This document shows positions 22,600 through 24,458 of a stretch of DNA of 64,000 nt, in pieces; within the stretch, counting starts at the first letter, position 1; each line of letters opens with the position of its first letter. Under the pieces are notes generated by a model. The model had not been told where the DNA came from. It worked only from the letters and a program-made list of their open reading frames with translations, and did no database searches. A program made the translations under genes and the position numbers. The stretch lies in the IMG/VR virus record IMGVR_UViG_3300021963_004854, positions 107,567-171,566 of that record. The stretch is one strand, 5' to 3'. This DNA comes from a virus.

Positions 22600-22760
22600 A
22601 ACTTATTTAATTACTCCTGCTGAGAGTAGCGCATATGGACGCATATGCTAGGCGGGCTGGGTGGGCCATCTACCAGTCCTGAAATAATCTCAGCAATGGC
22701 TTAGGAGAGGAAGCACCTCACTCCGAAATTCGCTCATGAGCAGGAGTAATTAAATGAGTT
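22600..22760 (+). ncRNA. Structured RNA A with a 22-bp closing stem
   Basis: 22600-22621 pairs with 22739-22760 over 22 bp with a single G-U. Inside lie hairpins GCATATG/CATATGC (22631-22648), GGGCTGG/CCAGTCC (22654-22679) and GGAG+AGG/CCT+CTCC (22704-22724). GCTGAGA (22620-22626) could also pair with TCTCAGC (22688-22694), an alternative to the stem tip. tRNA-Thr begins 2 nt after the stem. No open frame of note. Confidence 0.72.
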
Positions 22761-22762
22761 TT

Positions 22763-22838
22763 GCCCTTATAGCTCAGTTGGTAGAGCAGTTGATTTGTAA
22801 TCATCAGGTCCGGCGTTCGAGTCGTCGTGGGGGCACCA
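22763..22838 (+). tRNA. tRNA-Thr(UGU)
   Basis: Acceptor GCCCTTA/TGGGGGC, anticodon loop TTTGTAA (one mismatch in the stem), T-loop TTCGAGT, CCA encoded. Confidence 0.9.
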
Positions 22839-22840
22839 TT

Positions 22841-22927
22841 CTATAGCTAAACTACTCGCATGCCGTATGGTGCATGGAGTCTGTCGAGAATGTTTAGCGT
22901 AAGCACCAAGACGTGAGGTGCTTATAT
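22841..22927 (+). ncRNA. Structured RNA B between tRNA-Thr and tRNA-Asn
   Basis: GCTAAAC (22846-22852) pairs with GTTTAGC (22892-22898); within it CTCG/CGAG (22855/22885) and CATGC/GCATG (22859/22872) stack. A separate hairpin TAAGCACC/GGTGCTTA (22900-22924) ends 4 nt before tRNA-Asn. Confidence 0.6.
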
Positions 22928-23002
22928 TCCCTAATGGCGCAGCGGTAGCGCAGTTGACTGTTAATCAATTGGTCGGTGGTTCGAATCCATCTTAGGGAGC
23001 CA
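22928..23002 (+). tRNA. tRNA-Asn(GUU)
   Basis: Acceptor TCCCTAA/TTAGGGA, anticodon loop CTGTTAA, T-loop TTCGAAT, CCA encoded. Confidence 0.94.
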
Positions 23003-23008
23003 GTTTGA

Positions 23009-23083
23009 CGCAGGGTGGAGCAGAGGTAGCTCGTCTGGCTCATAACCAGAAGGTCGTCGGTTCAAGTCCGACTCCTGCAACCA
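23009..23083 (+). tRNA. Initiator-like tRNA-fMet(CAU)
   Basis: Acceptor CGCAGGG/TCCTGCA has the unpaired C1-A72 that marks bacterial initiators; D-stem GAGC/GCTC gives A11-U24, also initiator-like. Anticodon arm TCTGG/CCAGA with loop CTCATAA lacks the three G-C pairs of a full initiator. CCA encoded. Confidence 0.85.
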
Positions 23084-23084
23084 G

Positions 23085-23185
23085 TTTAGTATCTTTGATC
23101 TGGGACACGCATACTAAGTCGTGCATATAAACTAAGATGCCCTGCATTCAGGGCTACGTAGGGGAAGATCCTACAAGATACTAAA
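23085..23185 (+). ncRNA. Structured RNA C with an 11-bp closing stem
   Basis: TTTAGTATCTT (23085-23095) pairs perfectly with AAGATACTAAA (23175-23185). Inside are CACG/CGTG (23106/23120), GCCCTG-CATT-CAGGGC (23139-23154) and GTAGG/CCTAC (23158-23174), giving a four-way-junction-like layout. It begins 2 nt after tRNA-fMet. Confidence 0.68.
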
Positions 23186-23253
23186 ACACCGCCGCCCGTA
23201 TGGTGTATAACAATCCCGGGCCTAGTTTCTCGTAAATATTTTTCAAAAAAGTA
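23186..23253 (+). other. Spacer with two hairpins between RNA C and an internal promoter
   Basis: ACACC (23186-23190)/GGTGT (23202-23206), and GTAAATA (23232-23238)/TATTTAC (23252-23258) with T-run and A-run inside, the latter overlapping the -35 of the next promoter. The second could act as a terminator for upstream RNA. Confidence 0.4.
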
Positions 23254-23282
23254 TTTACAAACACCACACAGTGGTGTATAAG
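23254..23282 (+). promoter_or_regulatory. Promoter with palindromic spacer for the large RNA
   Basis: TTTACA (23254-23259), 17 nt spacer, TATAAG (23277-23282). The spacer carries CACCAC-ACA-GTGGTG (23262-23276), a possible operator. Transcription would begin at about 23289. Confidence 0.6.
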
Positions 23283-23288
23283 TAGAGA

Positions 23289-24238
23289 ATAAGAAATGGC
23301 GGTATAGCGTCATTAGGGTAACCTTCGGCAACGAAGGCCAAAGCAGGGACTCCTACGTACCTGCGCCGGTAACGGTCCATCTATACAAGCCCAGGTAAGG
23401 GTTGTCTCGGCCATGGCCGTAAGCAATCCCCGTCAGTAGAATGGCGGTAGGCAGTAAGTGAGTGATATAAGTCCGAAAGGATATGAACAGAGCCAGTCGG
23501 TGAGTTCTAATAGACTGTGGTGGTCTAGCTGTATCGAACCAAACTCGCGAATGCTGAAAAACTAATGGGTAATCGCTGAGTCTGATCTAGCAAGAAAAGG
23601 CAAAGCGGTAGCACAATAGTTGAACCGATGAGGGGAGACTAGAAGTGCGGTTGATTAGTCCGCAAGACGAAAGACATGAGGAGTGTTGTATTTTGTATCT
23701 AACAAGATACGAAGCAACTGGAGCAGCACTTCTTGGTAGGTTCGCAAATTGCTTAATGGTAAAGCAACTGACTCTTAATCAGTAGATTCTAGGTTCAAAT
23801 CCTAGTTTGTAACAAAAAGCGAAAGTCTGCTCCAGTGCTATGTGAAAGGTGCTTAATACCTAACACGGAAGTGAATTGGGTTCACGGATTCCCGCAAGGA
23901 TGAAGTGATTGATCCGAGTGAAGACGTAGCGGTTTAGCGACTGCGAACAGCTTGCAAGGCTGGCGGAAGAACGAAGGTCGAATAGCATAGCATGATAAGT
24001 GATAAGCCACACTTCAAAAAAGGCAGCACTGAGGAATACTAGATGACCAGCGATGGCTCTAGTGGATAACGAGTTAACACTTCTCGCAAGGAAGTCGGTA
24101 CGGCTCAAAGGTCCTCAACTAAAAGCAGTAATCTCATGCTTTACAAAGACTTATTAGATGAACACATCAAACCCACTGGGCGGCAGGTCGACTTAATGCT
24201 GCGATAGCGGTCCCTGGTGTGTTCTTCTAATAAGTTTT
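23289..24238 (+). ncRNA. Candidate large ornate RNA (about 950 nt) with embedded tRNA-like module
   Basis: Nearly 1 kb without a convincing gene on either strand but dense in helices and GNRA loops: CCTTCG-GCAA-CGAAGG (23322-23337), CCG-GTAA-CGG (23366-23375), GCAGG/CCTGC (23343/23360), TCC-GAAA-GGA (about 23472), GTATCT-AACA-AGATAC (23695-23710). ACTGGAGCAG (23717-23726)/CTGCTCCAGT (23827-23836) encloses a tRNA-like cloverleaf. GCTATG (23837)/CATAGC (23986) closes another domain. The 3' end is a long stem 24146-24166/24218-24238 touching tRNA-Ala. Size, tRNA neighbourhood and tRNA insert recall GOLLD and ROOL RNAs, but I cannot confirm membership. Confidence 0.6.
23742..23812 (+). tRNA. tRNA-Lys(CUU)-like module inside the large RNA
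   Basis: D-arm GCTT/AAGC, anticodon arm ACTGA/TCAGT with loop CTCTTAA, T-arm CTAGG/CCTAG with loop TTCAAAT are all perfect. The acceptor TCGCAAA/TTTGTAA has one mismatch and is followed by CAAA instead of CCA. It is enclosed by a 10-bp stem (23717-23726/23827-23836). May be a functional tRNA needing CCA addition, a pseudogene, or a structural module. Confidence 0.6.
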
Positions 24239-24314
24239 GGGGAATTAGCTCAGATGGTAGAGCGCCAGCTTTGCAAGCTGGATGTCAACGGTTCGATCCC
24301 GTTATTCTCCACCA
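24239..24314 (+). tRNA. tRNA-Ala(UGC)
   Basis: Acceptor GGGGAAT/ATTCTCC, anticodon stem CCAGC/GCTGG with loop TTTGCAA, T-loop TTCGATC, CCA encoded. Its first base follows directly on the terminal stem of the large RNA. Confidence 0.94.
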
Positions 24315-24458
24315 ATATAGACCACCTATGCTGAACCTCGTGGGGAACCACATAGAGAAAGTGGTAGTGTATGCTGTTGCAACAGTAATTGCTATCTAGG
24401 AAGATTGCAACGTCCGGAAGTAAGCAATCAAGGCACACTGCGGGTGGTCACTCTTTTT
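24315..24458 (+). ncRNA. Structured RNA D between tRNA-Ala and tRNA-Leu
   Basis: GACCACC (24320-24326) pairs with GGTGGTC (24443-24449). Inside: CTATG/CATAG (24326/24351) stacked under GTGG-GGAA-CCAC (24340-24351, a GNRA loop), AGTGT (24366-24370)/ACACT (24435-24439), CTGT-TGCA-ACAG (24374-24385), and GATTGC/GCAATC (24403/24424). No gene. A T-run (CTCTTTTT) follows the closing stem. Confidence 0.65.

What the first reader, a model, noticed from the sequence alone, without database searches (positions are those of the whole stretch)
22600..24458. tRNA-bounded structured RNAs, including a ~950-nt RNA with a tRNA inside
Between tRNA-His and tRNA-Leu the DNA has no genes but folds into modules with long closing stems (22 bp at 22600/22760, 11 bp at 23085/23185, 10 bp at 23717/23836, 20 bp at 24146/24238). 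Several GNRA-capped hairpins lie inside, and the module ends sit within a few bases of tRNA ends. The large part (23289-24238) recalls GOLLD/ROOL RNAs of phages, which lie near tRNAs and assemble into large multimers. RNase P/Z cleavage at tRNAs would release each module.
Basis: partly seen in the sequence, partly recalled or inferred. Interest (0 to 1): 0.85.

Follow-up and report, generated by a model that had tools for sequence, protein, structure and literature searches.

The report
Phage tRNA array with novel RNAs
A bacterial virus carries, threaded between its tRNA genes, a known giant RNA (GOLLD) and at least five smaller, apparently undescribed folded RNAs, and the tRNA-like piece embedded in the giant RNA has had its anticodon loop swapped between closely related viruses, which suggests that it may be bait or cargo rather than an ordinary tRNA.

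Summary
The stretch lies in the tRNA array of a T4-like phage (IMG/VR record, 171.6 kb). The large part is GOLLD: Rfam RF02032 matches 23678-24140 at 187 bits (gathering 150), and relatives support its 5' half (23289-23677) with 71 of 120 predicted pairs covarying. A tRNA in the GOLLD linker is already known from the literature.

What is new lies around it. The shorter spacers hold structured RNAs, called here A, B, C, C2 and E; a sixth, F, occurs only in relatives. Each recurs as 12 to 31 distinct copies in related phage contigs, on the tRNA strand, in shuffled order, some without GOLLD, with covariation above shuffled and slid controls. The five in the window have no Rfam match.

The GOLLD linker tRNA is unusual: two relatives with 1.6% divergence in the rest of GOLLD have identical tRNA bodies but differ at 5 of 7 anticodon-loop positions (P=4e-8). 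Another close pair differs in the whole tRNA.

Release by tRNA processing and all functions are inferred; the decoy idea is a hypothesis. The GOLLD part is known; the small RNAs appear new, with T4 rnaC/rnaD as the closest known kind.

The parts
22502..22560 (+). Array leader: promoter-like TTGACA (22502-22507), 17 nt, TATATA (22525-22530), then conserved TTCTTTGACATTGTTAGAAG at 22540, which resembles a ribosomal boxA
   Evidence: Sequence; TTCTTTGACATT lies within 400 nt upstream of an array tRNA in 11 distinct sequence contexts; the same leader stands before the window's other tRNA array near 17.65 kb. The promoter scanner did not list this pair (its rule needs T at position 6 of the second hexamer). 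The boxA likeness is recalled from memory.
22576..22596 (+). GC-rich hairpin of the leader (GGGAGGG-UUUCGG-CCCUCCC), without a T run
   Evidence: Sequence
22598..22762 (+). Module A: about 160-nt RNA closed by a 20-22 bp stem, ending a few nt before tRNA-Thr
   Evidence: 45 pairs, 94.9% paired, 27 with changes on both sides, score 0.516 against 0.207 shuffled, 7 sequences; 12 distinct copies
22763..22838 (+). tRNA-Thr(UGU)
   Evidence: ARAGORN, Rfam
22839..22927 (+). Module B: 89-nt RNA, two domains, fills the spacer between tRNA-Thr and tRNA-Asn
   Evidence: 28 pairs, 97.9% paired, 8 with changes on both sides, 12 sequences; also between tRNA-Phe and tRNA-Leu in L059
22928..23083 (+). tRNA-Asn(GUU) 22928-23002 and tRNA-Met(CAU) 23009-23083
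23084..23196 (+). Module C: about 110-nt multi-helix junction; P1 (7 bp) abuts P4 (5 bp, 7-nt loop) like a tRNA acceptor/T-arm stack
   Evidence: 26 pairs, 99.2% paired, 15 with changes on both sides, score 0.533 against 0.190, 20 sequences; model R1 104 bits in the window, 77-110 bits for 29 copies
23186..23221 (+). Module C2: H-type pseudoknot (ACACC/GGUGU stem, loop GCCCG pairing with CGGGC)
   Evidence: 100% of cells paired, 4 of 5 stem-1 pairs with changes on both sides, 18 distinct sequences; stem 2 invariant
23222..23288 (+). Spacer with two hairpins before GOLLD (GUAAAUA/UAUUUAC and ACACCAC/GUGGUGU)
   Evidence: Conserved in L046, L045, L067; absent in L048
23289..23677 (+). 5' half of GOLLD
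   Evidence: A13 (window 23285-23741): 120 predicted pairs, 71 with changes on both sides, 12 phages
23678..24140 (+). Conserved 3' domain of GOLLD (RF02032)
   Evidence: 187.3 bits, gathering 150, model 1-416 of 416
23742..23813 (+). tRNA-like element, anticodon CUU, in the GOLLD linker, enclosed by the 10-bp stem 23717-23726/23827-23836; no encoded CCA
24146..24238 (+). Module D: about 20-bp hairpin between GOLLD and tRNA-Ala; arms conserved, interior variable
   Evidence: 17 pairs scored, 98.8% paired, 2 with changes on both sides, 5 sequences; z -6.2
24239..24314 (+). tRNA-Ala(UGC)
24315..24458 (+). Module E: about 140-nt RNA between tRNA-Ala and tRNA-Leu, with invariant GCUGAACC, AAGGCACACU and a hairpin loop holding the palindrome UCCGGA
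   Evidence: 30 pairs, 93.9% paired, 17 with changes on both sides, score 0.345 against 0.166, 26 sequences; model R2 139 bits

Best explanation
This is a stable-RNA operon of a T4-like phage. One leader with a promoter-like and a boxA-like element precedes a long precursor in which tRNAs alternate with structured RNAs: A, B, C, C2, GOLLD with a tRNA-like insert, D and E. Cuts at tRNA 5' and 3' ends (RNase P; RNase Z or E), perhaps helped by RNase III at the long stems of A and D, would free each RNA. The freed RNAs then act in trans during infection: GOLLD as an RNA cage, the small ones as compact RNAs of the kind of T4 rnaC/rnaD. Shown here: membership of GOLLD, conservation, shuffled order and covariation of the modules, and the junctions with tRNAs. 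Inferred: transcription, processing, cage formation and action in trans.
For: GOLLD. Covariation with shuffled and slid controls: E, C (59), F (60), B (61), C2 (84), A (104), D weak (101). Modules recur on the tRNA strand in different orders and next to different tRNAs, some in arrays where no GOLLD was found, so they are independent units and not just parts of GOLLD. Tight junctions: E starts 4-5 nt after tRNA-Ala and usually ends 1-9 nt before the next tRNA; B sits 4-5 nt from both tRNAs in several arrays. In L181 module C lies in the intervening segment of a permuted tmRNA gene, another segment removed by tRNA-end processing. Conserved leader upstream of arrays.
Against: No expression or end-mapping data. 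Some copies of C have no tRNA on the stretch held (L192) or lie past an ORF (L143). The boxA likeness rests on memory, and the one genome scan made with the leader used a pattern too long to test it. All relatives with the small modules are IMG/VR contigs; four of the six modules were blasted against annotated phage records without a match.
Confidence: 0.72

Rival explanations
1. GOLLD carries a decoy. The linker tRNA is not a decoding tRNA but bait or cargo displayed or held by the cage, for example for host anticodon nucleases; its anticodon loop, or the whole tRNA, is exchanged as host defences change. (This concerns the linker tRNA and is compatible with the operon reading.)
For: L046 and L045: rest of GOLLD 1.6% different, tRNA body 0/68, anticodon loop 5/7 (P=3.9e-8; an earlier count with other bounds gave 1.4e-8). 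In the 15 other tRNAs compared between the two phages the anticodon is unchanged, though tRNA-Thr differs elsewhere. WIN and L106: rest of GOLLD 2.7% different, loop 5/7 and body 18/67. Linker anticodons CUU, UCU, UAG, UGA, AUG. The UGA one is 74 nt, all 65 other distinct Ser-anticodon tRNAs are 85 nt or more. 828 of 865 distinct array tRNAs have CCA at or next to the 3' end; most linker tRNAs do not. One linker has G instead of U33 (L002). Anticodon-loop changes in phage tRNAs as nuclease evasion: PMC10264068.
Against: The CUU loop is fully conserved over 14-24% GOLLD divergence, which also fits a decoding tRNA. Many of roughly 30 distinct GOLLD copies, including L213, L089 and L092, have no tRNA in the linker. 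One sister pair carries most of the statistical weight. No nuclease or host is known.
Confidence: 0.25
2. The linker tRNA is an ordinary decoding tRNA that happens to be inserted in GOLLD and is cut out and charged.
For: Cloverleaf recognised by ARAGORN and Rfam at 62 bits; conserved CUU loop; Lys and Arg identity depends largely on the anticodon (general knowledge).
Against: UGA anticodon on a 74-nt body; no encoded CCA in most; imperfect acceptor stems. In mycobacteria the tRNA inside GOLLD is called a pseudo-tRNA and no separate product was seen (PMC6582537).
Confidence: 0.25
3. The small modules act only in cis: spacers that fold to keep neighbouring tRNAs apart and to guide processing, with no role after cleavage. 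A and D look most like RNase III processing stems.
For: Tight tRNA junctions; D keeps its arms while its interior varies; A and D share the ACTTATT...AATAAGTTT edge before a tRNA.
Against: Invariant unpaired stretches in E, C, B and F; the same modules move between different tRNA neighbours and into a tmRNA intervening segment.
Confidence: 0.2
4. The small modules are further copies of RNA families already described.
For: A phage GOLLD and permuted tmRNAs are known; a glutamine riboswitch is reported in a marine phage tmRNA (PMC9004378).
Against: No Rfam 15 family overlaps A, B, C, C2 or E at E up to 5 beyond chance-level scores; the loci of C without tRNA context give tmRNA and tRNA only. F is absent from the window and was not searched separately. 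Models of C and E do not match T4 rnaC/rnaD. Families described only in papers outside the library, or after it, cannot be excluded.
Confidence: 0.12
5. Artefact: chance stems or overlooked protein genes.
For: Short ORFs overlap the region.
Against: Covariation far above slid and shuffled controls.
Confidence: 0.01

Closest known systems
GOLLD RNA (Rfam RF02032; Kretsch et al. 2025, PMC12286853)
   Same: Full-length match of the 3' domain above gathering score; variable 5' half; near tRNAs; tRNA in the linker, as the paper says sometimes occurs
   Different: Anticodon-loop and whole-tRNA swaps in the linker between close relatives were not found described in the papers read
ROOL RNA
   Same: Large phage RNA near tRNA islands
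   Different: No ROOL match anywhere in the window
T4 rnaC and rnaD (species 1 and 2 RNAs)
   Same: Stable RNAs of 119-139 nt inside a phage tRNA cluster; rnaC folds with a T-arm-like 3' hairpin CCGGGUUCGAAUCCCGG, as C has a P1/P4 stack
   Different: Models of C and E find nothing in the T4 region; A, B, C2 and F were compared by eye only
Permuted (two-piece) tmRNA of phages (RF04321, PMC9004378)
   Same: Module C sits in its intervening segment in L181
   Different: C is an independent RNA; elsewhere it lies in tRNA arrays
Bacterial rRNA operon leaders and processing stems
   Same: boxA-like leader, long closing stems near tRNAs
   Different: Likeness only, recalled and not tested against rRNA operons

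Membership tests
GOLLD RNA (RF02032) | Covariance-model score above the curated threshold | tested here: met
   187.3 bits against 150, model 1-416 of 416
GOLLD RNA (RF02032) | Structured, less conserved 5' half joined to the conserved 3' domain | tested here: met
   120 predicted pairs, 71 covarying, 12 phages; not compared with the published 5' structure
GOLLD RNA (RF02032) | Location near phage tRNA genes, optional tRNA in the linker | tested here: met
GOLLD RNA (RF02032) | Assembly into a 14-mer cage; expression linked to phage lysis | not testable with these tools
   Known for env-38 and other members (PMC12286853)
ROOL RNA | Match to the Rfam ROOL model | tested here: not met
   No match in the window
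T4 rnaC/rnaD | Small RNA inside a phage tRNA cluster | tested here: met
T4 rnaC/rnaD | Sequence and structure homology | tested here: not met
   Models R1 (C) and R2 (E) give no match on the T4 locus L203; other modules not tested with models
T4 rnaC/rnaD | Accumulation as stable RNA in infection | not testable with these tools
   needs RNA-seq or northern blots
Any Rfam 15 family, for modules A, B, C, C2, E | Match at gathering score or at E up to 5 | tested here: not met
   on window 22460-24720; only GOLLD and tRNA reach their thresholds
Decoding tRNA, for the GOLLD linker element | Body length fitting its anticodon class, encoded CCA | tested here: inconclusive
   CUU copies have plausible length; the UGA copy is 74 nt against 85 or more; most copies lack CCA. 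Encoded CCA is not required in all bacteria

The most novel reading that the evidence does not exclude
The array is a phage counter-defence RNA kit: GOLLD is a multimeric carrier that displays or encloses exchangeable tRNA decoys whose anticodon loop is matched to host tRNases, and the small RNAs A, B, C, C2, E and F are further RNA effectors with separate targets, traded between arrays as cassettes.
Probability: 0.15. Interest if true: 0.9.

Novelty: new variant of a known kind. Interest (0 to 1): 0.68.

Why it matters
GOLLD has a solved cage structure but no known function. Exchange of the anticodon loop in an otherwise identical linker tRNA gives a concrete, testable clue: what matters about that tRNA seems to be its anticodon loop. 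The small modules look like at least six undescribed structured RNA families, some with very strong covariation, in a place where T4 also carries stable RNAs whose role, to my knowledge, is unexplained. They give alignments and models that others can search with.

Tried and rejected
Blastn of E, C, F and B against 50,697 phage records found nothing; A and C2 were not searched singly. A stringent C pattern in 84,980 prokaryote genomes found nothing. A 20-nt leader pattern in the same collection found one stray match; it was too long to test the boxA idea. The RNAalifold structure of E missed the hairpin GAUUGC/GCAAUC, which I put in after seeing compensatory changes; its cells are 85% paired because some rows are shifted by one column. 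RNAalifold on all 12 A sequences was blurred by copies with a longer 3' part, so A was recounted by hand on 7 complete copies. The structures of A, C2, D, E and F were fitted while looking at the same alignments used to count them, so the slid and shuffled controls are partly favourable to them. Model R1 also scored some true tRNAs at 15-22 bits; I take this as similar geometry, not descent. The argument that a Leu anticodon needs a long variable arm was dropped, because these arrays also hold 29 Leu-anticodon tRNAs of 76-79 nt. Relatedness of the contigs is not modelled in the covariation or Fisher tests.

Full report
Setting. The window is the last 64 kb of a 171,566-base virus record. T4 RNase H, a DNA ligase, a CsgG-like curli gene and an alpha-type tmRNA elsewhere in the record fit the T4-like marine and freshwater myophages with curli genes and two-piece tmRNA described in PMC9004378. 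This placement is inference. Twenty-four tRNAs lie between 17.7 and 25.9 kb.

Observation. Five tRNAs lie between tRNA-His and tRNA-Leu. No convincing protein gene is there.

The large RNA is GOLLD. RF02032 matches 23678-24140 over its full length at 187.3 bits. The 5' half is conserved in relatives with 71 covarying pairs of 120 predicted. A 10-bp stem encloses the linker, and the linker holds a tRNA-like element. tRNAs in the GOLLD linker are mentioned in PMC12286853, and in a mycobacterial GOLLD the tRNA was called a pseudo-tRNA (PMC6582537), so this arrangement is known.

Relatives. A scan with the SPFH-like protein encoded next to the array and pattern scans with GOLLD, E, C, B, F and C2 sequences gave about 260 loci of IMG/VR phage contigs. 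An iterative profile search then listed the copies: 12 to 31 distinct sequences for each of A, B, C, C2, E and F. They lie on the tRNA strand, in different orders and beside different tRNAs. E follows tRNA-Ala in most copies, also where no GOLLD was found, such as L008, L024 and L059.

Covariation. Pairs with changes on both sides: C 15 of 26, with 99.2% of cells paired; E 17 of 30; A 27 of 45 in seven copies; B 8 of 28; C2 4 of 10, all in stem 1; F 5 of 17, one of them in the pseudoknot. Sliding the 3' partner by 1-3 columns reduces paired cells to about 16-53% for these six. D has only five sequences and two covarying pairs. No Rfam family matches A, B, C, C2 or E.

Architecture. C has a 7-bp P1 directly next to a 5-bp P4 with a 7-nt loop, like the acceptor/T-arm stack of tRNA; its model gives weak scores to real tRNAs. 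T4 rnaC likewise folds with a T-arm-like hairpin near its 3' end, but models of C and E find nothing in the T4 region. In L181 C lies between the two pieces of a permuted tmRNA. In L143 and L192 it lies downstream of one. L143 also shows the two invariant E motifs in reversed order next to C, possibly a circularly permuted relative of E. C2 and F are pseudoknots. E ends in a hairpin whose loop has the invariant palindrome UCCGGA, which could allow pairing between two copies; this is speculation.

Leader. TTCTTTGACATT precedes array tRNAs in 11 distinct contexts, after promoter-like hexamers in the window. This was not tested.

Linker tRNA. Between L046 and L045 the rest of GOLLD differs at 11 of 699 positions, the tRNA body at 0 of 68, and the anticodon loop at 5 of 7 (P=3.9e-8). 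Between the window and L106 the rest differs at 21 of 776 but the whole tRNA is different. The CUU loop is otherwise unchanged across 14-24% divergence. The loop is thus either kept or swapped. The UGA-bearing copy is 74 nt long, while all 65 other distinct Ser-anticodon tRNAs in these loci have at least 85 nt. Most linker copies lack CCA. This favours bait or cargo over a decoding tRNA, but the conserved CUU loop fits either. The link to anticodon nucleases is by analogy with PMC10264068.

Conclusion. GOLLD and its inner tRNA are known. The new content is at least six structured RNA families traded among phage tRNA arrays, and the swapped anticodon loop in the GOLLD linker. Their products, processing and functions remain unproven.

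Noticed in passing
window 59793-63942: Curli-like cluster: CsgG (PF03783, E 6e-53), a curlin-repeat protein (weak), a FecR-domain protein and a further repeat-rich protein; a curli operon is reported in related marine phages (PMC9004378).
   Followed up: partly
window 17640-17690: The leader TTCTGTTCTTTGACATTGTTAGAAG is repeated just before the first tRNA array (tRNA-Ser 17693).
   Followed up: partly
window 17785-17860: tRNA with Leu anticodon UAA but only 76 nt, without a long variable arm; 29 distinct Leu-anticodon tRNAs of 76-79 nt occur in the related loci. Their true identity is unclear.
   Followed up: no
L181 1632-2026: Permuted tmRNA gene with module C in its intervening segment.
   Followed up: partly
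L143 3600-3800 (minus strand): AAGGCACACT followed by GCTGAACC, the reverse order of module E, right after a copy of C; possibly a circular permutation of E.
   Followed up: partly
L046, L045, L048, L009 and others: Module F, a pseudoknotted RNA of about 70-90 nt absent from the window, shares CTGCTGAACC with E.
   Followed up: partly
G000:C1:14709-15050, outside the window: Alpha-type tmRNA in the same virus record, 71.8 bits.
   Followed up: no
window 21476-22279: SPFH/Band 7 lipoprotein gene inside the tRNA array; about 80 related viral contigs hold it, many without tRNAs on the stretch held.
   Followed up: partly
window 27762-29495 (minus strand): Large protease-like protein (phrog_3677, E 1e-36).
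   Followed up: no
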